A stretch of DNA of 39,826 bases from a candidate division FCPU426 bacterium (lineage in GTDB: Bacteria > Oederibacteriota > JAUXIB01). Below the pieces are notes generated by a model. It was not told the DNA's origin, did not search any database, and saw only the letters and a list, made by a program, of their open reading frames with translations. The stretch is taken from contig JAUXIB010000004.1 of assembly GCA_030621225.1 (NCBI GenBank), forward strand, positions 1 to 39,826, written 5' to 3'. Positions 6,687 to 28,270 of the stretch are shown here, piece by piece. A program made the position numbers and the translations under genes. Numbering within the stretch: position 1 is the first letter of the stretch; every line of letters starts with the position of its first letter.

Positions 6687-8159
6687 ATGAAATCAATTTC
6701 CAAGTCAAAATATATCTCCGGGCTTAAGTGCCCCAAGCTGCTCTGGTACCTATACAACGCCAAGGATGAAATCCCTGCTTTCGACGCGGCGACCGAGGCC
6801 AGGTTCGCTGGCGGCCATGAAATAGGCGAATGGGCGAAGAAGCTCTACCCAGGCGGCATTGAGGTGGCCTACGATCCTGATAGTTACGAGGCGATGATCA
6901 AGCAGACGAAAGAGCTCTTGCCCCAGCGGATACCAATATTCGAGGCGACACTTGAGCATCGGGGCGCCTTCGCCCGGGCGGACGTACTTGTCCCGGTGGG
7001 CGAGGATCAGTGGGATATGATAGAGGTGAAGTCCTCTACCAAGGTGAAAGACTATCACTATGACGATATGGCGGTGCAGGCATATATCTTCAAGGGCGAA
7101 GGGCTGAAGATAAGGAAGTGCATGTTAGCGTGTGTGAATAATCAATACGTGCGTCAGGGTGATATCGATCCGGCACAACTGCTCAAGCAAGAAGAGCTGA
7201 CCGAGGCGGTTGAGGAGAAGCTTGCCGGGGTTGCGGATAAGCTCAAAGAAATGCAGGAGATCATCAAGCTGAAGAAGTGCCCGGACACTAAGATCGGCAA
7301 ACACTGCGATATGTTTCATAGCTGCCAGATGGAAGAGGTCTGCTGGGGCTTTCTGCCCAAGCATAATGTCTTTACCCTGCGGAGCATCGGGGCAAAAGCA
7401 TACGAGCTCTTTGAGCAGGGGGTGCTGGATGTCGCTGATATTCCCGAGGAATTCTCGCTTAGCGATAAGCAGCAGATCCAGTTAGCAGCGATACGCAGCG
7501 GCCAGGCCCAGGTGGACAAGCTGGGATTACAGGAGTTCTTGGGGCAGCTAAAATATCCGCTCTATTTTTTGGATTTTGAAACGGTCTGGCCGCCGCTGCC
7601 GCTGTTCGATGGGGTTCGTCCCTACCAGCAGATCCCTTTTCAGTTCTCGTTGCATGTCCGTGAGAGCGAGGGCGCTGAGCTTCGACATCATTCCTATCTG
7701 GCAGAGGGCGGGGACGATCCAAGACAGGAACTGGCTGAGAAGCTGAAACCGCTGATGGGGGATAAGGGTTCTGTACTCGCGTTCAACGCCCGGTTTGAAT
7801 GCTCCCGCTTGCAGGAACTGGGTGAAGCTTATCCCGAATACGCGGCCTGGGTGGAAACGATCCTGGCCCGGGTGGTGGATTTGATCGTGCCCTTTAGAAA
7901 ATTTCATTATTATCACGCTTGCCAACTTGGTTATGCTTCGCTCAAGAATATTCTGCCCGCTTTCGATAAAAAAGCTTACCAGGATATGGCTATTGCTGAT
8001 GGTGGTACCGCTAGTAGTGAGTACGCTCGTGTGACGTATGGTGATGATGTTGCTCAGGAAGACCGTGCCAAGGTTCGCGAAGATTTGGAGGCCTACTGCG
8101 CACTTGATACGTTGGCTATGGTACGACTGCTGGATGGTTTGCAGGAACTTGTAAAGTAG
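6687..8159 (+). CDS. DUF2779-type protein (RecB-like nuclease region plus RNase H-like C-terminus)
   Basis: MKSISKSKYISGLKCPKLLWY start; IEVKSSTKV PD-(D/E)XK-like motif; Cys cluster; YFLDFETVWPPLPLF and CALDTLAMVRLL RNase H-like motifs. Confidence 0.85.
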   Translation: MKSISKSKYISGLKCPKLLWYLYNAKDEIPAFDAATEARFAGGHEIGEWAKKLYPGGIEVAYDPDSYEAMIKQTKELLPQRIPIFEATLEHRGAFARADVLVPVGEDQWDMIEVKSSTKVKDYHYDDMAVQAYIFKGEGLKIRKCMLACVNNQYVRQGDIDPAQLLKQEELTEAVEEKLAGVADKLKEMQEIIKLKKCPDTKIGKHCDMFHSCQMEEVCWGFLPKHNVFTLRSIGAKAYELFEQGVLDVADIPEEFSLSDKQQIQLAAIRSGQAQVDKLGLQEFLGQLKYPLYFLDFETVWPPLPLFDGVRPYQQIPFQFSLHVRESEGAELRHHSYLAEGGDDPRQELAEKLKPLMGDKGSVLAFNARFECSRLQELGEAYPEYAAWVETILARVVDLIVPFRKFHYYHACQLGYASLKNILPAFDKKAYQDMAIADGGTASSEYARVTYGDDVAQEDRAKVREDLEAYCALDTLAMVRLLDGLQELVK

Positions 8160-13419: not shown

Positions 13420-14715
13420 ATGTTTAACCCTTTTGGTAAATACTTCAGGGATTTGAAGGCAAAGGATCTGGAGATTCTCAAGGACAAGCAAGTAGCTGAG
13501 GGATGGCATGTTGAATACAAGGAAAGCAGACAGAAGGCGGAGAAAGTTGCCAAGTCTGTCTCATCGTTTGCCAACTCGCGAGGAGGAATATATTTTGTGG
13601 GCATTCAGGCCGATGATGATAACCGGTGTAAGAAAGTAGTCGGTGTTGAGGACTCGCCGGATGTGATAAGGGACTGCGTTAAAGGGCACATACAGCCTTT
13701 CCCATATTTCGAGACATTCGCTGTGAAACTAGTCAACAATATGAAAGTTCTAATAGTGGTAGTGCCAGAGAGCAAGACTCCTCCGCATATTCATTCTGAC
13801 GGAAGAATCTACGTTCGACAAGAAGCGGCTTCGGATCCTGTCTTTCAGAGTGATAGACATGTTATTGATGGTCTATATTCTAGGGCAGAATCGTGGCGGA
13901 AGGATCTTCAGGACTTCAGAACAATGGACTACGAATTATGCCAAGGGGAGAGCAATCAGCCCTATCTTCAGATCTTCATGAATACGGTGCCATATAAGCA
14001 TTTCATGATGAGCGACCTGTTTAAGGGCGAAGAGATAACGAAAATGCTAGCCCATTTTCACAAAGGCTATGAGATATCAGAAACGATAGATGGTAAGAAC
14101 GTGCCTTTCAGGGGGAATATCACATTAGATACCGTGAATACTTACCACAATAGTGTGGCTTTGAGGTATTTGAACGGAAGCGACATTTCTCGCAATGGAT
14201 TGACGGTAGAGGTGGATATTCATGGCAACACAAAGGTGCTTCTGCCTTTGGAATACACAACCTATGATAATCTTGAGAAGGAGGACGAGCTGTTCCAGCG
14301 TTACCATATTAAGTTAAGCAAATCGAACTTGGTTGCCGTGGATACCATAAAGTTCATCAACGTGAAAACACTATACGGTGCAATACTGGGACTGTTTGTG
14401 AAGGTCTCGAAGTACCTGAAAGACAGAGGCTATGAAGATACTCTAGAGGTAAAGATGAGATTGAGTGATTCGTGGCGAACGACGCTATACTGCGCCAGCG
14501 AAACATTTGTGTTCTATATAGAAGAGTGGGGAGTCCCTATCTGTATGAAGAATGACCAGTATTTTCCGGAATATGATCTTATCGTCAAGTTATCAGAGCT
14601 GAAGGCGAAGCCCATCACTCAGACTGCCCTTCTTTTTGCCCCGGTGGCCTCAGCGTTGGGCATGACAGGTTCCATAGCTACTCAAGCTGTGATTCAGACG
14701 CTTGCGAAGAAATAG
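13420..14715 (+). CDS. AlbA_2 / Schlafen-type putative DNA-binding domain protein
   Basis: EGWHVEYKESRQKAEKVAKSVSSFANSRGGIYFVGIQAD...HSDGRIYVRQEAASDPV. Confidence 0.85.
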   Translation: MFNPFGKYFRDLKAKDLEILKDKQVAEGWHVEYKESRQKAEKVAKSVSSFANSRGGIYFVGIQADDDNRCKKVVGVEDSPDVIRDCVKGHIQPFPYFETFAVKLVNNMKVLIVVVPESKTPPHIHSDGRIYVRQEAASDPVFQSDRHVIDGLYSRAESWRKDLQDFRTMDYELCQGESNQPYLQIFMNTVPYKHFMMSDLFKGEEITKMLAHFHKGYEISETIDGKNVPFRGNITLDTVNTYHNSVALRYLNGSDISRNGLTVEVDIHGNTKVLLPLEYTTYDNLEKEDELFQRYHIKLSKSNLVAVDTIKFINVKTLYGAILGLFVKVSKYLKDRGYEDTLEVKMRLSDSWRTTLYCASETFVFYIEEWGVPICMKNDQYFPEYDLIVKLSELKAKPITQTALLFAPVASALGMTGSIATQAVIQTLAKK

Positions 14716-14799
14716 GTGAACAGAAAGAGGGGGTCACTTATGAAAAAGCATGTCAAGCACGAAATGACGAAGGAATAGAGGAAGAGGGAACAGGCTTAA

Positions 14800-14960
14800 G
14801 CTAGGCAAGTTGACTTGTAGTAACAAAGGTGCTCTCGGTGAGGACCTTTTATTTTAGGCGCATTCTGCCATATTCATCCCAAAGATCTTTCCTATATCTT
14901 TTTTCATCTTTTTTTCAGCAAACCCCCATTTTGGTCAGGGGGAGGTGCTACGATAGTTAG
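14800..14960 (+). repeat. Terminator-bearing repeat, copy 2
   Basis: caagttgacttgtagtaacaaaggtgctctcggtgaggaccttttattttaggcgcattctgcc...cccccattttggtcaggggg. Confidence 0.8.
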
Positions 14961-14979
14961 GTAAAGAAAGGAGGATGAT

Positions 14980-15855
14980 ATGGAGCGAATGCACTTGAAC
15001 CAGCAGGGATCCTTTGATAGTCTTATTGAGGAAAGAGTGTTTGAATTAAGGAGAATGCGGATGAAGAAGTGGATTAATGGAATTCATTGTGGAGATTGTC
15101 TCGAGCTAATGAGGAAGATGCCCGAGAAGTGTATAGACCTGGTCGTTACGTCACCCCCCTATAATTTAAGAAACTCAACGGGGAATGGTATGAAGGACGG
15201 TCGTGGAGGTAAATGGGAAAAAGCCAGGTTGATAAACGGTTATGAAGAGCATGACGACAAAATGCCGCATGATAAATATGTGAGCTGGCAGAGAGATTGT
15301 CTAGCAGAAATGATGCGTCTGCTTAAGGATGATGGAGCTATATTTTATAACCACAAATGGCGTGTCCAGAAGGGAAAGTTGCAAGACAGACAGGACATTG
15401 TTGGTGATTATCCCGTTAGGCAGATAATTATCTGGCAGCGCAATGGCGGGATCAACTTTAATGCTGGATATTTCCTGCCTACATATGAGGTGATTTATCT
15501 AATAGCCAAACCAAAGTTTAGGCTCGCAAAAGGAGCAAATAAAATTGGTGATGTATGGTCAATACCTCAAGAAATGAATAATGAACACCCCGCTCCTTTT
15601 CCGGTGGAATTGATAGAAAGATGTATTGGCTCTACTAAGGCGAAGATCGTTTTAGATCCGTTTATGGGAAGTGGGACGACCGCTGTAGCGGCAGTTAATC
15701 TTGGCAGAAAATGGATTGGTTTTGATCTTTCTAAAACTTACTGCAAAATGGCGATGGAGCGTTTGGCAGAGAAGAAAGGATTAAATGATTCGCCATCTAA
15801 AGAAGTCCGAGCTAGAAGTAAAGTTAAAGGAAGTCATCGGCTTAGGTTGGCATGA
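14980..15855 (+). CDS. Type II DNA methyltransferase, beta class (likely N4-cytosine)
   Basis: DLVVTSPPYNL (motif IV) N-terminal to DPFMGSGTT (motif I); RBS aaaggagg upstream; overlaps the endonuclease ORF. Confidence 0.92.
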   Translation: MERMHLNQQGSFDSLIEERVFELRRMRMKKWINGIHCGDCLELMRKMPEKCIDLVVTSPPYNLRNSTGNGMKDGRGGKWEKARLINGYEEHDDKMPHDKYVSWQRDCLAEMMRLLKDDGAIFYNHKWRVQKGKLQDRQDIVGDYPVRQIIIWQRNGGINFNAGYFLPTYEVIYLIAKPKFRLAKGANKIGDVWSIPQEMNNEHPAPFPVELIERCIGSTKAKIVLDPFMGSGTTAVAAVNLGRKWIGFDLSKTYCKMAMERLAEKKGLNDSPSKEVRARSKVKGSHRLRLA

Positions 15856-16561
15856 TGTTTCAAGGTTTTCTGGCTCGGGAAGAGCGGGGGTCTTGTTAGA
15901 ACATTTGCTGGGTATTGAGGGGGGGAATTATGATTTACCAGACGCAGTTGGACACGAACTTAAGACGTCTCTTTCCTCCACTACGTTGGTTACGTTATTT
16001 CATAAGGATCCTAAGCCGCGAAAACCAAGTGTGGTTAAAGCACTCGTCGATGGTTTTGGCTGGGAGCCAACTCACAAAGACAAGTATCCGAGTGGAACTT
16101 TAAGCTTTAGGCACACGATTCACGGCAAGTCAGATAGAGGGTTCTCAGTTATTGTCGATGATGAGAAGATATCCATTGCTTTTCGTCCAGAGGATGTAGA
16201 CGCGAAGCACCGCGAATGGTTGGATTTAGTGTATAAAAGAACGAAGGGTCGTCTTGACCCATGTCCATACTGGACTGTCGACGAGATAGTATCCGCAGCA
16301 TCCTCGAAGTTGAGAAACTGTATTTTTGTAAAAGCAGTACAAGATAAGCCACAGAAGATGGTGAAGTATACAAACGCGTATTTTCTTGCTAACTTTAAGC
16401 CTATGTTCTTCCTTAAGTGTATCAAGGAAGGAAGGGTAGCCATTGACTTTGATGCAAGAACGAAAGGCAAAACAGTGAGAAACCACGGAACGAAATTTAG
16501 GATAAAAGAAGAGTATTGGCCGCACTTGTTTGAGAGTCAAGAGGAGCTGACCATACCTTAG
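15785..16561 (+). CDS. MvaI/BcnI-like type II restriction endonuclease
   Basis: GRAGVLLEHLLGIEGGNYDLPDAVGHELKTS (D...ExK); overlaps the methyltransferase 3' end by 71 nt. Confidence 0.8.
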   Translation: MIRHLKKSELEVKLKEVIGLGWHDVSRFSGSGRAGVLLEHLLGIEGGNYDLPDAVGHELKTSLSSTTLVTLFHKDPKPRKPSVVKALVDGFGWEPTHKDKYPSGTLSFRHTIHGKSDRGFSVIVDDEKISIAFRPEDVDAKHREWLDLVYKRTKGRLDPCPYWTVDEIVSAASSKLRNCIFVKAVQDKPQKMVKYTNAYFLANFKPMFFLKCIKEGRVAIDFDARTKGKTVRNHGTKFRIKEEYWPHLFESQEELTIP

Positions 16562-16707
16562 GGGGTGGGTGGCGCAGTGAATTCATCTAGTTTTGTAGGC
16601 ACCTTGTCCTGAGAAAACTATTTTGGGGTGATAAACGGACCGCGTCTTCCTCCTCCGTTTTACTACGGCGCGACTGGAGAATTATGACATATTAAGGAGC
16701 TTATTGA

Positions 16708-17619
16708 ATGTCCCTCGAAGCATCCCGCGAAATCCAAATCCGTATGAAAGCCTTCGCTTGGCTCAAGGAGAGAGCTATTGGGAATGAGGGCGTTTTTCAT
16801 TCCAGCGAGCTCAACGATTTCAAGGTTGATGGGAAGAGGATTACTCTAAAGGGATCAAGAGGGATATGGCAGCCCAAAGGTTGGGAGCTGCCGATTTCGA
16901 TTACCACCGCGGCAGATGGACCCTATGAGGATGTTGTCTCGGATGACGGTTTGATTCTTTACAAGTATCAAGGAACGAATGCCCAGCAGTGGGACAACGT
17001 TGGTCTGCGCAAAGCGATGCAGCAGCATGTTCCACTGATATACTTCCACGGTATTTCCCGAGTGAAGGGAAGACATGTCGCGATTTGGCCGGTGTTTATT
17101 GTGGGGGATGATCCTGCGAGCTTAACCTTCACAGTTGCTGCTGATGATATGTCAGCGCTGGATCAGGCGACTGAGAATGGTTTTGCTGAAGAGAACACTG
17201 GACGTCGGCAATACATCACAGCTACCGTGCGGCAACGCTTGCACCAACGCTCTTTCCGTATTCGTGTTCTGGATGCTTACCGCGAACGCTGTTCCCTGTG
17301 CAACCTAAGACATCCGGAGCTCCTTGACGCAGCACATATCATCCCTGACGGCCAACCAGGAGGCGATCCGATAGTTCCAAACGGTCTGTCCCTTTGCAAA
17401 ATTCACCACGCTGCCTTTGACAGAAACTTCTTGGGCATTACTCCTGACTATAATATTGATGTCCGAGCGGATATCCTGAAAGAGAATGACGGTCCCATGC
17501 TCCAGCACGGGCTGAAAGAACTGCATGAGAAGAAAATTATTCTGCCTAGGCGGAAGGATGATAGACCTAAGCCGGAGTTGCTTGAGAGAAGGTATGCAGA
17601 GTATAAACAAGTTGGATGA
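16708..17619 (+). CDS. HNH endonuclease with N-terminal SRA/PUA-like domain
   Basis: RIKLKG-like N-domain SITTAADGPYEDVVSDDGLILYKYQG; HNH CSLCNLRHPELLDAAHIIPDGQPGGDPIVPNGLSLCKIHHAAFD. Confidence 0.88.
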   Translation: MSLEASREIQIRMKAFAWLKERAIGNEGVFHSSELNDFKVDGKRITLKGSRGIWQPKGWELPISITTAADGPYEDVVSDDGLILYKYQGTNAQQWDNVGLRKAMQQHVPLIYFHGISRVKGRHVAIWPVFIVGDDPASLTFTVAADDMSALDQATENGFAEENTGRRQYITATVRQRLHQRSFRIRVLDAYRERCSLCNLRHPELLDAAHIIPDGQPGGDPIVPNGLSLCKIHHAAFDRNFLGITPDYNIDVRADILKENDGPMLQHGLKELHEKKIILPRRKDDRPKPELLERRYAEYKQVG

Positions 17620-17945
17620 AGGACGAAAGGGTTAAAAGGATCGAATCTCAATCGAATCTCGATTGAATGATATAATTAATAAGAATCCCCGGGCTAACAC
17701 CCGCGGTATTCTTGTCCCGAACGGTCGCCGGCAGGCGACCACAAGTTTTTCCTCCTTCGAATATGAAAAAGAAAAGCTTCTATTGCGTCCGCTTCCTCCT
17801 ACGCTAACCTACTTCGCACTTCGTGCTACGAAGGTCAGGAAGCTATGGAGGACAAGAAAGCGAACGATATATAACGCTTCCTCCACGAGCTTACGCTCGT
17901 GGTATTCGTGCGCAACGGAATAAACGGTAAATGCGGAGACTTGAC
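17615..17945. mobile_element. Repeat with a 236-bp insertion flanked by 5-bp direct repeats (AATAA)
   Basis: Uninterrupted relative at 8973-9045 (gattgaatgatataattaataaacggtaaat); filled site has 17683-17918 inserted between AATAA copies at 17678-17682 and 17919-17923. Confidence 0.75.
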
Positions 17946-18007
17946 CCTGACCCTCGGAGTATACGTTGGTGAATGAGCGGATAGACAAGTAGCGGGGAGA
18001 AAGCAGA

Positions 18008-19144
18008 ATGGACTATGGACGAGGTCTGAACGATAGACTGTCTTTGTGCCTGGATAAGTTCAGTATATTCGTAGAGAAGGAAAACGGTACGCCGCTAGAA
18101 CAATTCAGTTCCCATCGTTATGTAGTTGAATATGAGAACTACAAGACGATACTTCGGCTGGACGCCAGGGATAAATTGCTGTATTGGCAGTGGGAAAGTG
18201 AGTCTTTCGGAAGTGGTTTGATTCTCGAGAATCTTATAGGTGCAATTGAAATAGACGAGAACAATTTCTTCCGATGGAGGGAGAAGCGCGTTGGGCTCAA
18301 GGGGATAGCTCATCGAAGGTTGGTTGAGCTGAGAGGGGGATCGGATGACCTAGCAGAATTCGAAAAGAAGACATACCTATTCTTCAAAGATGAATGTTCG
18401 CATAAACATTACTTTGACTATCTAGTGGAGACTATCGGTAGGAAGTACTCGCTACTAGCATATATCTTCTTTCTCAAGGATTCTGAAAAGTACCTCCCGA
18501 TTTCTACCACTAACTTTGATAGACTTTTCATTGATCTTGACGTACCTATCACGACCAACAGAAATTGTTCGTGGGAGAACTACCAGGAGTTTCTCGGGTT
18601 CATAGCTCATGTGAGGGAGTTTTTGGGCACAAAAGGCCGTGGTGAGATATCTCTACTTGATGCGCACTCCTTCTGTTGGATTCTCACAAAGCAAATGAGG
18701 AAAAAGGCCGAAGAGCTGCCGTTTCTCAAGGGAGCGATGGGTGCGGGGACCGGGGAGAACCGAATATCTACAACCACTGCAAGAATAGGACAGGATCGTT
18801 TTCGAAAGCACCTGATCGCTCTGTGGGGCGAGAAATGCTCGATATCAGACTACGATAATCTGAAGTTCCTTACTGCGTGTCATATAAAGCCTTGGAATGA
18901 TTCAACTAGTGAGGAGAAGGGTGATCCCGACAATGGACTTCTGCTTACCCCGTGTTACCATGAACTGTTTGATAAGGGCTACATAAGCTTCGATGATGAT
19001 GGAGGAATAGTGCTGTCGAAGAAACTGATGACAGATGATGTGGACTCGCTGAGCATTGATAAGTCTGCGAAGTTGAGACAGGAACTGACGATTGACCAAA
19101 AGCGTTACCTTGAATTCCATAGAGAGAACATATATAAGTCCTAG
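18008..19144 (+). CDS. HNH_2-type endonuclease
   Basis: RFRKHLIALWGEKCSISDYDNLKFLTACHIKPWNDSTSEEKGDPDNGLLLTPCYHELFDKGYISFDDDG. Confidence 0.85.
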   Translation: MDYGRGLNDRLSLCLDKFSIFVEKENGTPLEQFSSHRYVVEYENYKTILRLDARDKLLYWQWESESFGSGLILENLIGAIEIDENNFFRWREKRVGLKGIAHRRLVELRGGSDDLAEFEKKTYLFFKDECSHKHYFDYLVETIGRKYSLLAYIFFLKDSEKYLPISTTNFDRLFIDLDVPITTNRNCSWENYQEFLGFIAHVREFLGTKGRGEISLLDAHSFCWILTKQMRKKAEELPFLKGAMGAGTGENRISTTTARIGQDRFRKHLIALWGEKCSISDYDNLKFLTACHIKPWNDSTSEEKGDPDNGLLLTPCYHELFDKGYISFDDDGGIVLSKKLMTDDVDSLSIDKSAKLRQELTIDQKRYLEFHRENIYKS

Positions 19145-19163
19145 CGAATAGTGACTGAGCTTT

Positions 19164-20156
19164 ATGCCTACTAGTAGATATAGAAAACTATCAGACTTCA
19201 TTCGCAACCAGATGCGGATGTCGCATGTCTATCAGCCGGTAATGCTGATTGAGTTGTTGAAGCATGAGGGCAAGGCTTCGGTGCGGCAGATTGCCAAGGC
19301 GTTATCGGGGCAGGATCTCTCTCAGATTGAATACTACGAGCAAATTACCAAGAATATGGTGGGTCGGGTGCTTACTAAGAATCGGGGGATCACTGATAAG
19401 CAAGAGAACAACTACCACATAAAGGGTTTTGACCAGCTCTCGCCGGCTGAGATCAAGCAGTTGGTTGAGTTATCGATGCAGCGCTTGGATGAATACGTGG
19501 CCAAGCGAGGCAAGGACATCTGGTCGCACCGGCGCAAGTCGAGCGGCTACATATCTGGAACCAAGCGTTATGAAGTGTTAAAGAGAGCCAAGTTTTGCTG
19601 TGAACTGTGTGGCATCTCTGCTCGCAAAAAGGCGTTGGAGGTGGATCACATTGTGCCGCGAAGCAAGCAGGGATCCGATGATATCTCGAATCTTCAAGCG
19701 TTGTGTTACAGCTGTAATGCCATGAAGCAGAATCGGGACGACACCGACTTTCGTGGCATCGAAAGACGCTACAAGGAAAGAACTCCCGGCTGTGTCTTTT
19801 GCGACCTGCCCAAAAAGCGGATCATTGGCGAGAACGAACTGTGCTTAGCAATGCGTGATAAATATCCAGTGACCGAGTTACATTCGTTAGTTATTCCCAA
19901 ACGGCATGTGCGCGAATACTTTGGATTATTCCAGCCGGAGCTAAATGCAGTTAACTCCTTGTTGGTAGAACTGAAGAAAGATATCGCGAAGCGTGATGAT
20001 ACAGTGACTGGCTTTAATATTGGGGCAAACTCTGGGCCTGATGCCGGGCAGACCATTTTTCACTGTCACATCCATCTGATTCCAAGAAGGAAGGGCGATG
20101 TAAAGAATCCGCGCGGGGGAGTGAGGGGAGTGATTCCGGAGAAGCAAGGGTATTAG
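19164..20156 (+). CDS. HNH endonuclease - HIT hydrolase fusion protein
   Basis: HNH: CELCGISARKKALEVDHIVPRSKQGSDDISNLQALCYSCN; HIT: GFNIGANSGPDAGQTIFHCHIHLIPRRKGD. Confidence 0.92.
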   Translation: MPTSRYRKLSDFIRNQMRMSHVYQPVMLIELLKHEGKASVRQIAKALSGQDLSQIEYYEQITKNMVGRVLTKNRGITDKQENNYHIKGFDQLSPAEIKQLVELSMQRLDEYVAKRGKDIWSHRRKSSGYISGTKRYEVLKRAKFCCELCGISARKKALEVDHIVPRSKQGSDDISNLQALCYSCNAMKQNRDDTDFRGIERRYKERTPGCVFCDLPKKRIIGENELCLAMRDKYPVTELHSLVIPKRHVREYFGLFQPELNAVNSLLVELKKDIAKRDDTVTGFNIGANSGPDAGQTIFHCHIHLIPRRKGDVKNPRGGVRGVIPEKQGY

Positions 20157-20237
20157 TGTAAGTAGTGTGTGATGAAAAAGTCGCAATTCTAGACGCGGTC
20201 CCTTAATTTTATACGTAGAGGAGCACCACTGCGTGCT

Positions 20238-20270
20238 CCCCCATGCCTCAAAGAGGCATGGCTAAGGGTG
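20238..20270 (+). repeat. CATGCCTC-N3-GAGGCATG hairpin repeat
   Basis: ccccatgcctcaaagaggcatgg; same element in 8338-8378 and 12791-12830. Confidence 0.75.
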
Positions 20271-20484
20271 AGTTTTTTCGATTGAACACGTAGGGGCAGC
20301 CCATGCCTGTCACACCTGCGAAAGCATGTCCTCATGAAAACGGGGATAGGTGTCCAATACAAAAGGGGAGGGTGTGGGTGAAGGAAGCCAGGAGTGGGGG
20401 TGAAGAAGGGCGTGCAATAAATGTCAGAGGTGGGGCGAAGGGGACAAGTCTAAAACTGTCTATCGACTAAATTAAGGAGGCACC

Positions 20485-21081
20485 ATGGCAAGAAGCGGAA
20501 CGACAGTGCCGCAGGAGATCAAGATTGCTCGGATCAACAATGAATGGAGCATGTCGTGGAATCACATCGGCAATATCAGCACGGTCTTTTGGGGGATATT
20601 TGCGGCTCAGGTAGTGATCAACGGGGCCATTGTTTTCAAATTTGACGATCTCAATGCCACAGCTGCCAGCTTCTGGTTGCTTCTCTTCAACATACTCGTG
20701 GCCCTTCATTACCAAAGGGAGCATTGGGCCAGAATGAGAATAATTAATCATATCTGTGGACTGAGAAAGGCACTAAAGTTGCCGGATGATGAAGAAAAAT
20801 TGTTGTTTTTTAACTCCTTGAGAGTTCCCAAACCCCGTTTCGATAAGGTTCATGCCTATTTTATCTCGTTGCACCTGCTATTTATCGCCATACCGTTCTA
20901 TCTTTTTTGTTGCGAGACGGTGGCAACGGGAAAAATGGTGTACAGTTGCGCCAACCTTGCGTCTCCCAAAGGTTTGACAGCTTTTGCCATTTTTGTTGGC
21001 GCAGCTATCTGGTATGGCTATGACGATGCCAAGAGCAGGGACAATATCGCGAAGCACTGGAAAGAGCGGAAGGAGGGGTAA
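20485..21081 (+). CDS. Predicted multi-pass membrane protein, first gene of the OLD operon
   Basis: About four hydrophobic segments (TVFWGIFAAQVVINGAIVF, SFWLLLFNILVALHY, YFISLHLLFIAIPFYLFC, LTAFAIFVGAAIWYGY). Confidence 0.75.
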   Translation: MARSGTTVPQEIKIARINNEWSMSWNHIGNISTVFWGIFAAQVVINGAIVFKFDDLNATAASFWLLLFNILVALHYQREHWARMRIINHICGLRKALKLPDDEEKLLFFNSLRVPKPRFDKVHAYFISLHLLFIAIPFYLFCCETVATGKMVYSCANLASPKGLTAFAIFVGAAIWYGYDDAKSRDNIAKHWKERKEG

Positions 21082-21083
21082 TT

Positions 21084-22553
21084 ATGAGAATATCTGCGTC
21101 TGATTTGTACTCTTTCCAAAAACCATCAAAATGCTCTCTCCGCGTCTACCTCCGGCATATAGGTGAACCACAATTAGATTCTGGTCCTTTCGAGCAGGTG
21201 CTCCAGCGTTTTGGGATAGAGCACGAAAAAAAGCATCTTGATTCTTTGGGGGACTTCGTTGATCTAAGCGAGGAATTCAATCCCGAACTCAGGACCAGGG
21301 AAGAGGTCGAGAAAAAATCTGCGGTTATCTATCAGCCAAACATGGGCGTGAATGAGACCGTTGGTGGTACTGCTTGCGAGGTAGTGGGGCGTCCCGATTA
21401 CTTCCTTCTGGATGGAGATGAGTATGTGATTCGCGATTCGAAAATATCGAGGCGAATCAATGATAGGGACCATCCTGAAATAATCAATCAACTGAATGTT
21501 TATGGCTGGTTATTCAATAAGACATTTGGCAAGCCACCTAAGCGGTTGGAAGTACACAATGGGCTAAATGAGATAGTTCCCGTCGACTATGCGGGGGATG
21601 AAAAAGTTGCAGAAAATCTCAAGAGCATTTTAACTATAAAGCTATCTGAAGAAGAGCCGTTTGAACCAGTGGGCTGGTCAAAGTGCAATGGGTGTGCGTT
21701 TAGGGATAAGTGTTGGCCTGAAGCTGAAGCGAGAAAAGATGTAGCTATGGTTGCTGATCTGGATCAGGGCATTGTTAGAGCATTGCGCGGTGAGAGTATT
21801 GTTACCGTCAGTGAGTTCGTAGATAAGTATGACGAGAATAGTTTGGCTGAATTGCAGAGACCCTGGGGACAGAGGACACAACGGGTTGGAAAGTCGGCTA
21901 CTAAAATCATGCCGCTTGCCAGGGCAATGGCTAGCGGGAAAGAAATACTGATTCAGAAACCTGACATTCCACAACATGAGAATTATGTGATGTTTGATTT
22001 AGAGGGATTGCCGCCTCACCTTGATGAGTTAGAAAAGATATACCTGTGGGGGATGCAAGTCTTTGGCGAAAAGCCATCGGATTTTATTCCGGCAACGGCA
22101 GACTTTGGCGAAGAGGGGGATGAGCAAGGGTGGAATGACTTTCTGGCTAAAGCTAAAAAGATATTTGATGAATATGGGGATATACGATTCGTTCACTGGG
22201 CCACGTATGAAAAGACCTATGTGAAGAAATACATTGAAAGATACGGGGATTCTAATGATGTTGGGGCAAAGGTGTTAGAAAGTCTGTTGGATTTACTGCC
22301 TATTGCAAAAAGCTCGATAGCTTTGCCTCTGCCGAGTTATAGTTTAAAAGTGGTAGAGAAATACAGGGATGTTGGATTCAAACGCTCGATGGCTGAATCA
22401 GATGGCGAGTGGTCAATTGCTAAGTACATCGAGGCGACGGAGACAAATGATCCCAAGAAACGAGAGGAGGTGATGAATGAGATACTGAAATATAACGAGG
22501 AGGATTTGTTGGCTACTTGGGCAGTGTTTGAATGGTTAAACAGTAAACGATAA
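21084..22553 (+). CDS. TM0106-type RecB-like nuclease with RNase H-like C-terminus
   Basis: MRISASDLYSFQKPSKCSLRVYLRHIG; YVIRDSKISRR; CNGCAFRDKCWPEA Cys cluster; YVMFDLEGLPPHLDELEKIYLWGMQ RNase H-like motif; EEDLLATWAVFEWL. Confidence 0.82.
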   Translation: MRISASDLYSFQKPSKCSLRVYLRHIGEPQLDSGPFEQVLQRFGIEHEKKHLDSLGDFVDLSEEFNPELRTREEVEKKSAVIYQPNMGVNETVGGTACEVVGRPDYFLLDGDEYVIRDSKISRRINDRDHPEIINQLNVYGWLFNKTFGKPPKRLEVHNGLNEIVPVDYAGDEKVAENLKSILTIKLSEEEPFEPVGWSKCNGCAFRDKCWPEAEARKDVAMVADLDQGIVRALRGESIVTVSEFVDKYDENSLAELQRPWGQRTQRVGKSATKIMPLARAMASGKEILIQKPDIPQHENYVMFDLEGLPPHLDELEKIYLWGMQVFGEKPSDFIPATADFGEEGDEQGWNDFLAKAKKIFDEYGDIRFVHWATYEKTYVKKYIERYGDSNDVGAKVLESLLDLLPIAKSSIALPLPSYSLKVVEKYRDVGFKRSMAESDGEWSIAKYIEATETNDPKKREEVMNEILKYNEEDLLATWAVFEWLNSKR

Positions 22554-22563
22554 AGGGGGAATA

Positions 22564-22752
22564 ATGCCAAGTGTTAATTCAAGTGTGTTTAGTTCTATCG
22601 ATTACGATCAAGAAACAAAGACGTTGGTAATGACATTCAAACACGGGAAGGAATATCCGATTTATAACTTTCCCGAAAATGTCTATAAAGAATGGATGGC
22701 CGCTGATTCCTTGGGGAGATATTTTAATGATAATATCAAGGACAAGTACTAG
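22564..22752 (+). CDS. KTSC domain protein
   Basis: 62 aa; MPSVNSSVFSSIDYDQETKTLVMTFKHGKEYPIYNFPENVYKEWMAADSLGRYFNDNIKDKY. Confidence 0.88.
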   Translation: MPSVNSSVFSSIDYDQETKTLVMTFKHGKEYPIYNFPENVYKEWMAADSLGRYFNDNIKDKY

Positions 22753-22755
22753 ACA

Positions 22756-24783
22756 ATGATTATCAAATCAATCCGCGCGAAGAATTTTCGATCCATCAAA
22801 GACGCAACGCTCATATGCGAGAATCTGTCTGTATTGGTAGGAGGGAATGGTGCAGGTAAATCTTCTTTCTTCAAAGCTATTGAAGTATTCTATAATCCTT
22901 CAACAGTAATTACTGAGGATGATTATCATAATAAAAAGTTGGACGAAGAAATAGCGATTTCAATAACGTTTACTGAATTGACAAAGTCAGAATTGGATGT
23001 GCATTCAGCGTATGTTGATGAGAAGGTGCTTACTGTTGAGTATATAGTTAAGTGGGATGGCAGAAAGGCAATAGGGAAGTATCATGGTGCCACTCTTAGA
23101 AACGGAGAATTCGCGGTTGTAAGAGAGGCTTTAGAATTATCAGACAGGGGAGCTACCGCTAAGAAGGAATATAGCTTTTTGCGGGGAAAGGAGAAATACA
23201 GCAGTCTACCCGCCTATGGCTCTAAGGGAGCGACCGAAGAAGCTCTTGTAGCGTGGGAAAAAGAACATCCGGGTGAATGTATAAGAATGCGTGATGCCGG
23301 ACAGTATTTCGGTTTTAAGGAAGTGGGGCAGGGGAAATTAGAGAAGCACACCAAATTTATTCTCATTCCTGCTGTCAGAGATGCTTCCGATGATGCGGAA
23401 GAGGGACGAGATTCATATCTATCAGAATTAATGGAATTGCTAGTAAGAAGCGCCATATCGAATCGAAAAGAGTTTCGGGATTTTAGGGAACGAGCGAAGG
23501 AAGAGTATAGTAATATAATGAACCCCGAAAACATCAAAGAACTTGATGAATTATCTTCCACTATGACCGAAACCTTGCAGACGTTTGTTAAGAACGCAGA
23601 AGTGGATCTATCGTGGCGGGACTTACCGGAGCCGACTTTTCCTTTACCACAAGCAGATATGAGACTGGTCGAGGATGACTATAAGGCTACCGTGACACGA
23701 GTTGGACATGGCCTACAACGAGCGCTTATCTTTACTATTTTTCAGCATCTTGCAATGGCACAAGAAAACAAAGTTATTGAAACCGTGGAGGCACAGGGAG
23801 AAGGCGAAGGAAACGATGAAGAGCTCGGGCAGCCAAATCTGATAATTGCAATTGAAGAGCCAGAGCTATATCAGCACCCCAGTCGCCAACGTCACTTATC
23901 AGATATTCTTTCACAAATAGCTAAAGGAACAATACCAGGTGTGGCGAAAAAAACTCAAATTCTATATAGCACACATTCCCCTTTGTTTGTGGGAATGGAT
24001 AGAATTAATCAGGTCAGACTGATCAAGAAGAGTAAGATGGATAATAGTTCGATCAAACAGACAACAGTAGCTCAGATAGACGTGGACGCGATAGCCGAAA
24101 AATTATGGGAGCTGAATGGAGCTTTGGGAGAAAAATATACAGCTGAAAGTGTGCTTGCGCGTCTTGGAACGATTATGACACCTATGATGAATGAAGGTTT
24201 CTTTGCTAATGTTATTGTGCTTGTGGAGGGCGAAGGAGACAAAGCTGTCTTGCATGGAATAGCAAAGGTTAAGAAAATAGATTTTGAGGAGCAGGGAGTA
24301 TCTGTCATTCCTTGTATGGGGAAAACCAATATTGATAGGCCATACCTAATCTTCAAGAAATTTGGAATAGATGTATTTATAATGTGGGACGGCGATTACG
24401 GCAAAGGTCAGGAAGGGGAGGGATGCGAGAAGTGCGGCAGGGGGAAAAGCAAGGCCGCAAATCCTTCCGAAAACAGGCGCATCCTTGCAATGTTAGGTCG
24501 AACGGAGCAAGATTGGCCAGATGAAGTAACTGAAGAACATGCTTGCCTAAAGGTGGATCTGGAGACAACCATAAAAGAGGAAATAGGCGAGGATGAATTT
24601 GCGAAAAGTCTTTCTGAGTGCTGTGAAGAATTTGGCATGAAGAAGAGATATGCTCTAAAAAATCCATATGTTATTGAGAGCATTGTGGGAACGAACAGAG
24701 AAAAGGGCCGAATTTGCTCTACACTTGAAAAAGTAGTTGATAAAGTTATTGCTATGAAAAACCGAAAAGATCGTGATTGTTGA
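22756..24783 (+). CDS. OLD-family ATP-dependent endonuclease (ABC-type ATPase + TOPRIM)
   Basis: Walker A GGNGAGKSS, IIAIEEPELYQHP Walker B, YSTHSPLF H-loop, TOPRIM VIVLVEGEGDKAVL and MWDGDYG. Confidence 0.93.
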   Translation: MIIKSIRAKNFRSIKDATLICENLSVLVGGNGAGKSSFFKAIEVFYNPSTVITEDDYHNKKLDEEIAISITFTELTKSELDVHSAYVDEKVLTVEYIVKWDGRKAIGKYHGATLRNGEFAVVREALELSDRGATAKKEYSFLRGKEKYSSLPAYGSKGATEEALVAWEKEHPGECIRMRDAGQYFGFKEVGQGKLEKHTKFILIPAVRDASDDAEEGRDSYLSELMELLVRSAISNRKEFRDFRERAKEEYSNIMNPENIKELDELSSTMTETLQTFVKNAEVDLSWRDLPEPTFPLPQADMRLVEDDYKATVTRVGHGLQRALIFTIFQHLAMAQENKVIETVEAQGEGEGNDEELGQPNLIIAIEEPELYQHPSRQRHLSDILSQIAKGTIPGVAKKTQILYSTHSPLFVGMDRINQVRLIKKSKMDNSSIKQTTVAQIDVDAIAEKLWELNGALGEKYTAESVLARLGTIMTPMMNEGFFANVIVLVEGEGDKAVLHGIAKVKKIDFEEQGVSVIPCMGKTNIDRPYLIFKKFGIDVFIMWDGDYGKGQEGEGCEKCGRGKSKAANPSENRRILAMLGRTEQDWPDEVTEEHACLKVDLETTIKEEIGEDEFAKSLSECCEEFGMKKRYALKNPYVIESIVGTNREKGRICSTLEKVVDKVIAMKNRKDRDC

Positions 24784-24787
24784 AATC

Positions 24788-24873
24788 CGGAGGGTTGGCC
24801 GAGTGGTCTAAGGCGGCGACTTTATAAGTCGTTGGGCAGAAGTGCTCCGGGGGTTCGAATCCCTCACCCTCGG
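24788..24873 (+). tRNA. Class II (Ser-like) tRNA-like gene, apparent anticodon UAU
   Basis: GGAGGGTTGGCCGAGTGGTCTAAGGC D arm, anticodon arm GCGAC-TTTATAA-GTCGT, variable arm GGGCA-GAAG-TGCTC, T arm GGGGG-TTCGAAT-CCCTC; CCA not encoded; acceptor position 1 mismatched. Confidence 0.75.
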
Positions 24874-25059
24874 ATCTAATGAAGGGACCGAGGTTTAGTG
24901 GGGCGAGGATCATACTTGACTTGATAAAAACATTCTTGAAGTGCCCGTTTTTGTCCGGTGCTCGTGTTAGTATAGTTCATAGTTTAGATGATTGCGTTAA
25001 GGTCTTAGTCGTCGACACAAAGAGTGGAGTAACTCATCAATCTCAGATATAATGAAGCC

Positions 25060-26454
25060 ATGAGTGGAACCGTAGCCGACAAGAAGAGATTACTGAAAGT
25101 AACCGCTGCCAATCTTAAGCGAGGCAAGTTGAGCATAACCGGGAATTATGACTTTTTCCCGGCAAGATCCCTCAGGATTCATCTTAAGGGATTGGATGAT
25201 ACTATTACGACCCATGTAAGCCATGGTCCGAATGGGAAACCTGATGGATATCTTGATGGTACGGAATGGGTGCGGCGCTTCTATGAATATCATAAGATTA
25301 GAACAGGGGACATCCTCGCTCTTGAAAAAAACGGCAATGGCACTTATCGATTGTATTCCTTTGAGGCAAAGCCGGAGAGACATGGCGATTGGCATCGATT
25401 CGTACACAAGCCTTTGCGGGGCAAGGGTCCCACGATATTAGAGCTCTTTGCGGGATGTGGTGGATTGATCCAGGGCTTTAAGAGAGCAGGTTTCAGAACT
25501 GTGTTAGCAAACGAATGGGATGCGTCTGCCGCAGAAACAATCAGAGCTAACCTAACGGAAAGAGTGGCGCAATGCGCCGTGCAGGAGATAAAGAAGTTTC
25601 CCTCTGTTGATGTTGTGGCCGGCGGACCGCCGTGCCAAGGTTTTAGCAATCTTGGGGAGAGAGTGCCCTGTGATCCTCGACGACAACTATGGCGACATTT
25701 TATGAGAGCGGTTGGAGAAGCGAGTCCCAGGGCTTTTGTGATGGAGAACGTCCCGCCGCTTCTTTCGTCTCAGGAATACGTTGAGATAAAGAAGATAGCT
25801 ACTGAGCTAGGATACAACGTGGCGGGAAAGATACTGAACACTGCTGATTATGGTGTGCCACAAGTTAGAAAACGGACGATAATCATAGGATTGCAGGAGG
25901 GCACTCCGTCGTTCCCCGAGCCTACACATGTGAATCCAGCCAAGAAAGACCTCTTGAATAGCGAACTTCCCCCGTGGCAAACTGTCAGAGATGCCATCGG
26001 CGATCTTCCCTTTGAACCGGACGGTAGAAATTGGCATATTGGACGAAATCCTACCGATAAATCCAAGAAGAGATATAGGTGCATACCCGCAGGAGGTAAT
26101 CGATGGGATCTTCCGAGACATTTGATGCCCGACTGCTGGAAAAGAAAGACGAAAGGCGGAACGGATCTTTTTGGTCGCTTGTGGTGGGATCGTCCCTCGG
26201 TAACGATACGGACGGAGTTTTACAAACCGGAAAAGGGAAGATACTTGCACCCTGAAGCTCATCGACCGATCACTCATCGTGAAGCCGCGAGATTGCAGGG
26301 GTTCCCGGATGACTTTGATTTTAAGGGTAGTAAGATTAAAGTTGGAATTCAAATTGGTAATGCAGTTCCCCCTCTTTTAGCAGAGGCAATCGCCAAACAT
26401 GTCGCTAAGTTGATTGCAGTAAGGAAGCCTGCCGAGTTGGTTGCATCAGGATAA
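25060..26454 (+). CDS. DNA (cytosine-5) methyltransferase with N-terminal putative DNA-recognition domain
   Basis: Motifs I ILELFAGCGGLIQGF, IV GGPPCQGFSN, VI MENVP, VIII VRKRTIIIG, IX REAARLQGFPDDF, X QIGNAVPPLLA. Confidence 0.95.
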   Translation: MSGTVADKKRLLKVTAANLKRGKLSITGNYDFFPARSLRIHLKGLDDTITTHVSHGPNGKPDGYLDGTEWVRRFYEYHKIRTGDILALEKNGNGTYRLYSFEAKPERHGDWHRFVHKPLRGKGPTILELFAGCGGLIQGFKRAGFRTVLANEWDASAAETIRANLTERVAQCAVQEIKKFPSVDVVAGGPPCQGFSNLGERVPCDPRRQLWRHFMRAVGEASPRAFVMENVPPLLSSQEYVEIKKIATELGYNVAGKILNTADYGVPQVRKRTIIIGLQEGTPSFPEPTHVNPAKKDLLNSELPPWQTVRDAIGDLPFEPDGRNWHIGRNPTDKSKKRYRCIPAGGNRWDLPRHLMPDCWKRKTKGGTDLFGRLWWDRPSVTIRTEFYKPEKGRYLHPEAHRPITHREAARLQGFPDDFDFKGSKIKVGIQIGNAVPPLLAEAIAKHVAKLIAVRKPAELVASG

Positions 26455-26470
26455 ACAATAAGATTACGCG

Positions 26471-27451
26471 ATGGCAAAAAGGCGGCCCCAAAAAGGTGTA
26501 AACGAGCTGATTGCGTATATTGACCGAGAGTTGAGAAAATTCGGCAAAGTGCGTAAGGGTGTTTCTCTGCGAAATAATGTAATTGCCTTGGCGAGGTTGC
26601 GCCAAGCGTTAGATGATCTTGGAGTTAGTACGTTGGCGGAAGGTGGGATATCCGCCAAAGGAGCAAGAGAGCGAATAAAGTTATACATGCGCGAGTATGT
26701 CGGTGAAGTTATTGAGAGCGTTGAGCTTGAGGTAGTCACGGGTATCTCAGAATATGCGCGAAGAATTCGAGAACTTAGGGTTCAATTCGGCTATCATATA
26801 GCATCCGGGGCTTCCCCTGATCCGCATTCCGAGGTGGATCTACGACCGGATCAATACATTCTTGTTGATGGGGAACCTGATCAGGATGCAGCGCGGAGGT
26901 GGGGGATAGTCAACAGAATTAGGCGAGGCAAAGGCGGCAGCAAAGATAAAATTCTACAGTTTTTGAAAGAGAATGTTGGAAAAGTTGTTACGACGGAAGA
27001 ACTTGCCTACGTTGCTAATAAAGTCAAAAATTACCCTCGCCGAATCAGAGAGCTCAGAACCGAAAGTGGTTATTCGATAGCTACCAGGTTAACCGGACGC
27101 CCGGATCTAAAAGTTGGCCAGTATGTATTGCTGTCCGCCGAGAGAATCGCCGAACCGCACGATAGACAAATCCCTGATGAAATACAAAAGACTGTATATG
27201 AACGAGATAAAAGTAAATGTAAAGTTTGTGGGTGGACTCAAGACCGCTGGTCCAAAAGAGATCCAAGAATACTTGAACTTCACCACTTGGAACACCATAA
27301 GGAAAAAGGTTCCAATAGGGAGGAAAACTTGACGGTCATCTGCAGTAAGTGCCACGATGAAGTACATTCGGGGAAACACAGAGGTGTTGTCGACAAGATA
27401 AAGAAAGCACTATGTCGGACGTATTCTCGAAGAAAAAAAGATCGGAGATAA
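26471..27451 (+). CDS. HNH restriction endonuclease with two N-terminal repeats
   Basis: HNH CKVCGWTQDRWSKRDPRILELHHLEHHKEKGSNREENLTVICSKCHDEVH; repeated ARRIRELRVQFGYHIA / PRRIRELRTESGYSIA. Confidence 0.88.
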   Translation: MAKRRPQKGVNELIAYIDRELRKFGKVRKGVSLRNNVIALARLRQALDDLGVSTLAEGGISAKGARERIKLYMREYVGEVIESVELEVVTGISEYARRIRELRVQFGYHIASGASPDPHSEVDLRPDQYILVDGEPDQDAARRWGIVNRIRRGKGGSKDKILQFLKENVGKVVTTEELAYVANKVKNYPRRIRELRTESGYSIATRLTGRPDLKVGQYVLLSAERIAEPHDRQIPDEIQKTVYERDKSKCKVCGWTQDRWSKRDPRILELHHLEHHKEKGSNREENLTVICSKCHDEVHSGKHRGVVDKIKKALCRTYSRRKKDRR

Positions 27452-27506
27452 TGAGTCGCATCCGCGGCCCGGGCACTAAGCCGGGGGCGAGGGTCATACC
27501 TTCGAT

Positions 27507-27590
27507 GGTCAAGTTAACTTGTAACAACAAAGGTGCTCTCGGAGAGCACCTTTTGTTTTAGGCGCATTCTGCCATATTCATCCCTGAGCA
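27507..27590 (+). repeat. Terminator-bearing repeat, copy 3
   Basis: caagttaacttgtaacaacaaaggtgctctcggagagcaccttttgttttaggcgcattctgccatattcatccc. Confidence 0.85.
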
Positions 27591-27745
27591 TTTTATGTTT
27601 CGCTTAAATCGGGAAGAAACCACGGCTTTGAGATGCCAATCTGGCATCTCAAAGAAAGGCAGAGGCGGGCGAAGTCTCTGGAATGTTTCACATTGCGTAT
27701 TTTGGCCTAGCTGTGATGTCCAAGAGTCGTAGAAGCGAGATAGCC
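27583..27745 (+). pseudogene. Decayed ORF6N-domain gene fragment
   Basis: PEHFMFRLNREETTALRCQSGISKKGRGGRS aligns with PEDFMFELTKDEARVLRSHFATSKKGRGGRR of the 36953 gene, then after a frameshift FGLAVMSKSRRSEIA versus QGVAMLSTVLKSEQAI. Confidence 0.75.
27626..27654. repeat. Coding-register palindrome in the ORF6N relic
   Basis: CTTTGAGATGCCA-ATC-TGGCATCTCAAAG, 13-bp perfect arms. Confidence 0.9.
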
Positions 27746-27895
27746 AAGGGTGCAGCGCTCAAGAGATGGAGTAAGCGATCAGAGGCAAAAAAGCGCAATC
27801 TATCCCGCAGAATATCGCTGGATTCCCGCCAAGAGAAAAGCCATAGCCAGGAAGGTGGCTATGGCCGATGGAAAAACGCCAAATAGATAGTATGG

Positions 27896-28270
27896 TTACC
27901 GCATGTAGGAAGACGCTATGTTACTGTCCCACAGTGGAATCGTGTAGAATTCTTCCCACCTCTTTTCCTTGCACAATGCAAATACCGATTGAGCAGCCCT
28001 CTCTTTGAACCACCTCTTTGCCTGCATTCGGGCTTCTTTCTGCTTAACCTTCTGTTTCATTTCTGCCATGAACTCGCTAAGGTGCACTACGGTAAGCCCC
28101 ACCATTCTCTTTGATTTGACTTCATAGTGGAACGCCATGAATTCGTCAACTTCCCTGGTGGCGATTGGATAGTTTATTTTAGAAATTCGGGTAGTCATTG
28201 TGTTTGATTTATGGTCTATCCGAATGGTTATGTATTCTTTCCCTATCTTTTTCCTTACTACCGTTGCCAT
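27896..28270 (-). CDS. Hypothetical protein, second gene of an overlapping pair
   Basis: 124-aa ORF overlapping the upstream ORF by 13 nt on the minus strand. Confidence 0.6.
   Translation of the reverse strand: MATVVRKKIGKEYITIRIDHKSNTMTTRISKINYPIATREVDEFMAFHYEVKSKRMVGLTVVHLSEFMAEMKQKVKQKEARMQAKRWFKERAAQSVFALCKEKRWEEFYTIPLWDSNIASSYMR

What the first reader, a model, noticed from the sequence alone, without database searches (positions are those of the whole stretch)
20485..24783. Candidate undescribed defence operon: membrane protein + TM0106/RecB-like nuclease + KTSC + OLD ATPase/TOPRIM
Four genes on one strand with gaps of 2, 10 and 3 bp, in a defence island between two R-M systems. The OLD protein keeps Walker A (GGNGAGKSS), EEPELYQHP, the THSP H-loop and TOPRIM acidic residues (EGEGD, DGD). 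The partner is a RecB-like/RNase H-like protein with a Cas4-like cysteine cluster, not a UvrD helicase as in Gabija or a reverse transcriptase as in retrons. A 62-aa KTSC protein and a roughly 4-TM protein complete the cassette. I know of no characterised system with this gene set. The defence role is inferred from gene content and context.
Basis: partly seen in the sequence, partly recalled or inferred. Interest (0 to 1): 0.85.

Follow-up and report, generated by a model that had tools for sequence, protein, structure and literature searches.

The report
KTSC–OLD nuclease pair in defence island
The four neighbouring genes are really there, but comparison with other genomes shows that only the last two, a tiny KTSC protein and an OLD-type ATPase-nuclease, recur as a pair (in other bacteria and in one archaeon), so this is probably a little-noticed two-gene variant of a known family of anti-virus nucleases rather than a new four-gene system.

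Summary
The four same-strand ORFs, their gaps (2, 10, 3 bp) and motifs are confirmed: a 4-TM orphan, a TM0106-type nuclease, a 62-aa KTSC protein and a 675-aa OLD ATPase-TOPRIM. Their grouping as one four-part system is not supported. Nuclease relatives (42-57% identity) in four genomes of the phylum have no OLD or KTSC beside them (two of these genes are split at contig ends). The membrane protein has no detectable relative. The KTSC–OLD half is recurrent: KTSC lies directly upstream of OLD in the two closest OLD relatives (45-46%) and again before a very divergent OLD in Haloferax and three Streptomyces plasmids. In the three genomes counted, the only KTSC is the one beside OLD. Upstream partners differ each time (TM0106; RmuC inside an Hma/DUF499 locus; a helicase-nuclease), so KTSC–OLD behaves like a mobile two-gene module. 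KTSC also follows HerA in SIR2–HerA loci and is fused to a HerA in the PDB. No paper found in the searched library describes KTSC–OLD. Most likely: a class 1-like OLD nuclease with a KTSC adaptor or regulator. Defence is inferred. A tRNA-Ser-like gene with a UAU anticodon starts 5 nt after OLD and is unexplained.

The parts
22564..22752 (+). KTSC-domain protein (62 aa), proposed adaptor or regulator; core part
   Evidence: PF13619 1.4e-19; directly upstream of OLD in L019, L046, L096, L097, L101 and L102; the only KTSC in its genome
22756..24783 (+). OLD-family ABC ATPase + TOPRIM nuclease (675 aa), catalytic motifs intact; core part
   Evidence: PF13175, PF20469; PADLOC Old 172 bits; best PDB sequence and fold match 6p74, T. 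scotoductus OLD; clade 97/97 with L019, L046, L024, L025, L057
21084..22553 (+). TM0106-family RecB/Cas4-like + RNase H/DEDD-like nuclease; same apparent transcript, linkage to OLD not conserved
   Evidence: TIGR03491 133.9 bits; relatives without OLD/KTSC in G014, G015, G017, G019
20485..21081 (+). 198-aa protein with four predicted TM helices, orphan; first gene of the apparent transcript
   Evidence: no Pfam, PADLOC or NCBIfam family; no relative in 45 phylum genomes, viral contigs or plasmids; hydropathy
24788..24874 (+). tRNA-Ser-like (class II) tRNA gene with UAU anticodon, starting 5 nt after the OLD stop; relation unknown
   Evidence: ARAGORN; Rfam tRNA 49.8 bits; nearest relatives are tRNA-Ser

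Best explanation
The functional unit is a two-gene KTSC-OLD module, sitting in a defence island behind two unrelated accessory genes (an orphan 4-TM protein and a TM0106 nuclease). OLD is an ABC ATPase that controls a TOPRIM nuclease (motifs shown; activity inferred from the family). The small KTSC protein, made just before OLD and probably coupled to it in translation, is proposed to bind nucleic acid and/or the ATPase and so tie nuclease activation to an infection-specific nucleic-acid or ATPase state (inferred). On infection OLD would then cut DNA, as T. scotoductus OLD and GajA do, or less likely tRNA, as AriB of PARIS does, stopping the phage or the infected cell (inferred). The module moves between defence loci as an add-on effector.
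For: KTSC immediately upstream of OLD, same strand, gaps 3, 5 and 12 bp in window, L019 (Verrucomicrobia MAG) and L046; these are the closest OLD relatives found (45-46%). One KTSC per genome in each, and it is that one. Same gene order with a very divergent OLD-TOPRIM in Haloferax (L096) and three Streptomyces plasmids (L097, L101, L102), gaps 51-52 bp. Different upstream partners in each of the three close loci: TM0106; HmaA helicase + RmuC with HmaB/HmaC downstream; an AAA_11/12 helicase + MTES_1575 nuclease. KTSC follows the HerA-type ATPase in SIR2-HerA loci (L085, L086, L095 by domain; L089, L090 by annotation) and is the C-terminal domain of a solved HerA, 8wiv. OLD-TOPRIM genes are reported as auxiliary effectors in BREX/DUF499 systems (PMC12839542).
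Against: No function was tested. The close group rests on three loci, and three other members of the same OLD clade (L024, L025, L057) have no KTSC; L057 has an NYN protein there instead. OLDs of the second lineage also occur without a detectable KTSC (L098, L099, L100). Grouping of the three KTSC-linked OLDs is only 77/93. Single-gene (class 1) OLDs work without a partner, so KTSC may be dispensable. KTSC also occurs without any ATPase directly beside it (L082, L087, L091-L093).
Confidence: 0.55

Rival explanations
1. All four genes form one multi-subunit defence system: the membrane protein senses or executes at the membrane, and the TM0106 nuclease and OLD act together on phage DNA.
For: Tight spacing (2, 10, 3 bp), one strand, separate Shine-Dalgarno sequences, no more terminator-like sites than chance. 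In each of the three closest KTSC-OLD loci a nuclease-type gene stands upstream (TM0106, RmuC, MTES_1575).
Against: No second locus with TM0106 or the membrane protein beside OLD or KTSC in 45 phylum genomes, 338 genomes of the Verrucomicrobia MAG's phylum, plasmids or viral contigs; one Mesorhizobium plasmid has a TM0106-type protein near a KTSC gene but on the opposite strand. Closest nuclease relatives stand among YceG, EngA, glycogen debranching enzyme and GGDEF genes. GC3 drops from 0.57/0.46 to 0.44/0.38 between the two halves.
Confidence: 0.13
2. OLD is an ordinary class 1 OLD that acts alone; KTSC is a passenger with its own nucleic-acid function and the gene order is incidental.
For: Class 1 OLDs are defined as single genes (PMC10568477); PADLOC's best model is Old and the fold match is T. 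scotoductus OLD; clade members without KTSC exist.
Against: Same order and orientation in two OLD lineages from several phyla and one archaeon, near-zero spacing in one lineage, and one KTSC per genome in the three genomes counted.
Confidence: 0.2
3. The cassette is not antiviral: OLD and the RecB-like nuclease serve DNA repair or chromosome functions, as the class 5 OLD Cran1 does in Sulfolobales.
For: Cran1 is a class 5 OLD with a membrane-protein neighbour and no apparent antiviral role (PMC12796447); TM0106 relatives stand among housekeeping genes.
Against: Sparse distribution of this OLD (2 of 45 phylum genomes), R-M genes on both sides, and relatives inside Hma-type defence loci and on plasmids.
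Confidence: 0.12

Closest known systems
Class 1 OLD nucleases (T. scotoductus OLD 6p74, P2 Old)
   Same: ABC ATPase + TOPRIM in one chain; best sequence and fold match in the PDB; motifs intact
   Different: Class 1 is defined by single genes; this one has a recurrent KTSC gene directly upstream
Gabija (class 2 OLD, GajA-GajB)
   Same: OLD-type ATPase-TOPRIM protein; GajA is the next-best fold match
   Different: No UvrD-like helicase beside it; KTSC instead
SIR2-HerA(-KTSC) loci and the HerA-KTSC chain of PDB 8wiv
   Same: A small KTSC gene directly beside the ATPase gene, or fused to it; HerA-KTSC coupling noted in PMC9503650
   Different: ATPase is HerA, effector SIR2 or an endoDNase; here the ATPase and nuclease are one OLD chain
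OLD-TOPRIM auxiliary effectors in BREX and DUF499 (Hma-type) loci (PMC12839542)
   Same: L019 and L057, relatives of the window OLD, stand between helicase and DUF1156 methylase genes of such loci
   Different: The window has no DUF499 or DUF1156 gene around OLD; KTSC is not mentioned in that paper
PARIS (AriA-AriB)
   Same: OLD-type ATPase coupled to a TOPRIM nuclease
   Different: In PARIS the two are separate proteins; here one chain
TM0106 family RecB-like nucleases (TIGR03491)
   Same: The window nuclease is a full-length member
   Different: Plasmid members examined are about 1,100-aa proteins; this one is 489 aa and lacks their C-terminal half

Membership tests
OLD family (any class) | N-terminal ABC ATPase with Walker A/B and H-loop, C-terminal TOPRIM with acidic residues | tested here: met
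   AlphaFold model mean pLDDT 78 with 6p74 as best PDB match
Class 1 OLD | Encoded as a single gene without conserved partner | tested here: not met
   KTSC directly upstream in window, L019 and L046, and in a second OLD lineage
Class 1 OLD | No helical insert in the TOPRIM domain | tested here: inconclusive
   best fold match is class 1 TsOLD, but residues 551-567 of the model are below pLDDT 50
Class 2 OLD (Gabija) | Adjacent UvrD/PcrA/Rep-like helicase gene | tested here: not met
   neighbours are KTSC, TM0106 nuclease, HNH proteins, tRNA and C5-MTase
Class 3 OLD (retron Eco8 type) | Adjacent reverse transcriptase and msr-msd RNA | tested here: not met
   no RT among neighbouring genes; no retron RNA in Rfam search of 18000-28000; NF038234 54.9 bits against a cut-off of 250
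Class 4 OLD (PARIS) | ATPase and TOPRIM as separate proteins | tested here: not met
   both domains in one 675-aa chain
Class 5 OLD (Cran1) | Sulfolobales clade in an operon with one membrane protein, cell-cycle role | not tested
   a membrane protein is present three genes upstream of OLD, but no Cran1 sequence was compared; description from PMC12796447
KTSC family | PF13619 domain of about 58 residues | tested here: met
   70 bits against a cut-off of 25
TM0106 family RecB-like nuclease | Full-length match above the TIGR03491 cut-off | tested here: met
   133.9 bits, residues 5-485 over model 3-462
OLD accessory of an Hma/DUF499 system | HmaA helicase, DUF1156 MTase and DUF499 ATPase around OLD | tested here: not met
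   absent among the annotated genes at 13420-27451
Antiphage defence system | Protects cells from phage | not testable with these tools
   needs an experiment

The most novel reading that the evidence does not exclude
KTSC-OLD is a separate, undescribed class of OLD system found in bacteria and archaea, in which KTSC is a required nucleic-acid-sensing subunit shared by OLD-, HerA- and perhaps E1-based defences; in this genome it has further recruited a TM0106 nuclease and a membrane protein, and the adjacent odd tRNA is its target, decoy or immunity element.
Probability: 0.12. Interest if true: 0.75.

Novelty: new variant of a known kind. Interest (0 to 1): 0.45.

Why it matters
What activates OLD nucleases, and what class 1-type OLDs need to work, are open questions in the field (PMC10568477). 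A recurrent 60-70-aa partner that also accompanies HerA ATPases would give a small, testable regulator common to otherwise unrelated ATPase-based defences. It would also let genome scans tell a KTSC-linked OLD from a single-gene OLD.

Tried and rejected
Four-gene co-occurrence: searched and not found. The search for the nuclease in the Verrucomicrobia MAG's phylum had no positive control, so its empty result is weak. The membrane protein model is unusable (pLDDT 50), so its fold was not searched. PADLOC DruK and AriA matches are generic nuclease/ATPase similarity and are not evidence for Druantia or PARIS. The tRNA as integration site: no second copy of its 3' end in the window, left open. Papers on KTSC: 13 hold the word, no title or abstract among them concerns OLD; the two passages read call KTSC DNA-binding (PMC9503650) or RNA-binding (PMC7824862).
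Full report
Observation. The four ORFs are at the stated coordinates on the + strand with gaps of 2, 10 and 3 bp. Families: none for the 198-aa four-helix protein; TIGR03491 (TM0106) for the 489-aa nuclease; KTSC for the 62-aa protein; AAA_15 plus OLD-like_TOPRIM for the 675-aa protein. Catalytic motifs of both enzymes are intact. OLD has no clear Shine-Dalgarno and starts 3 bp after KTSC, so translational coupling is likely. The 328 bp before the first gene and the tRNA plus 185 bp after the last one mark off the cassette. Flanking R-M genes are real: an MTase overlapping an MvaI/BcnI-type enzyme at 14980-16561, and a C5-MTase with an HNH protein at 25060-27451.

Setting. The window is one whole 39.8-kb contig of a 2.6-Mb assembly of 266 contigs, 90% complete. 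Its phylum is represented here by 45 genomes.

The nuclease. In the phylum, five genomes including this one carry a close TM0106 relative. In G017 and G019 it stands whole among a subtilase, YceG, EngA and glycogen-debranching genes; in G014 and G015 it is split at contig ends, with no OLD or KTSC on the sides seen. No relative was found in 338 genomes of the Verrucomicrobia MAG's phylum, though that search had no positive control. The three plasmid members read are longer proteins of about 1,100 aa, next to WYL regulators, SbcCD-type or methylase genes. Nothing links this nuclease to OLD except position in the window.

The membrane protein has no relative in the phylum genomes, plasmids or viral contigs, and its model is poor.

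The OLD protein. In 45 phylum genomes only one other relative was found (34%, G039, beside methylases). Closest relatives are L046 (G214, same phylum as L019) and L019, a Verrucomicrobia MAG, at 45-46%; then viral contigs L024 and L025 and G894 (L057) at 40-42%. These six, with the window, form a clade at 97/97. By fold the best solved match is class 1 T. scotoductus OLD, then GajA and retron Eco8.

KTSC-OLD linkage. In L019 a KTSC gene ends 5 bp before OLD. In L046 ORF picking first hid it behind a longer false ORF; a profile search showed a KTSC gene ending 12 bp before OLD. Each of these three genomes has exactly one KTSC, and it is this one; KTSC is rare, present in 1 of 14 control genomes. 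The three were chosen through OLD, so this is evidence of linkage within this OLD group, not a frequency for OLDs at large. L024, L025 and L057 lack KTSC.

An independent recurrence came from the KTSC side. Among plasmid KTSC genes (136 records), 15 neighbourhoods were read. Haloferax L096 has KTSC 52 bp before a divergent OLD-TOPRIM protein. Its relatives in Streptomyces plasmids L097, L101 and L102 have KTSC 51-52 bp upstream too, while L098-L100 do not. So the order KTSC then OLD occurs in at least two distant OLD lineages.

KTSC beyond OLD. KTSC directly follows the HerA-type ATPase gene in SIR2-HerA loci on five plasmids (L085, L086, L089, L090, L095; HerA domain checked in three), follows a ThiF/E1 gene with an E2 gene in Halorubrum (L083), and forms the C-terminal residues 628-692 of a HerA-type chain in PDB 8wiv. 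HerA-KTSC coupling has been noted in passing (PMC9503650). In at least five other cases no ATPase partner was next to it.

Modularity. The gene upstream of KTSC-OLD is unrelated in each of the three close loci: TM0106 nuclease here, RmuC within an Hma-type locus in L019 (HmaA, HmaB, HmaC by PADLOC), and a 1,703-aa helicase with an MTES_1575 nuclease domain in L046. That OLD-TOPRIM genes serve as auxiliary effectors in BREX and DUF499 loci is published (PMC12839542). All three upstream genes are nuclease-type, which may be chance in defence islands, and is the best remaining argument for a functional link to the nuclease.

Mechanism. Shown: an intact ATPase and TOPRIM site, a recurrent KTSC gene before it, occurrence in differing loci. 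Inferred: nuclease activity, KTSC as adaptor or regulator, defence. I favour DNA cleavage because the nearest solved relatives cut DNA (PMC10568477); tRNA cleavage as by AriB (PMC12409363, abstract) cannot be excluded.

Verdict. The cassette is real as a gene cluster. As a four-part system it is unsupported. As a KTSC-OLD two-gene module it is a new variant of the OLD kind, with moderate interest.

Noticed in passing
24788-24874 (+): Class II tRNA gene whose nearest relatives in the phylum are tRNA-Ser (about 72-76%), but with a UAU anticodon (AUA codon) and a mismatched second acceptor pair, starting 5 nt after the OLD stop. No tRNA near OLD in the other loci checked. Unexplained.
   Followed up: partly
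6687-8159 (+): A second Cas4-like nuclease with a DUF2779 domain, stand-alone, of the same general build as the TM0106 nuclease but not clearly related by BLASTP.
   Followed up: partly
19164-20156 (+): Protein combining an HNH nuclease domain with a C-terminal HIT domain, directly downstream (19 bp) of another HNH_2 protein at 18008-19144.
   Followed up: no
L095:622-7207: Mesorhizobium plasmid with SIR2-HerA-KTSC and a TM0106-family protein on the opposite strand next to it.
   Followed up: no
L083:1681-4713: Haloarchaeal E2 - ThiF (E1-like) - KTSC gene cluster; annotations of two further plasmids show KTSC overlapping ThiF.
   Followed up: no
L057:6457-8989: Hma-type locus in which an NYN-domain protein takes the KTSC position before the OLD gene.
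   Followed up: no
4237-5388 (+): Fic protein with a strong PADLOC SoFic match (391 bits), a known single-gene defence protein, in the same contig.
   Followed up: no
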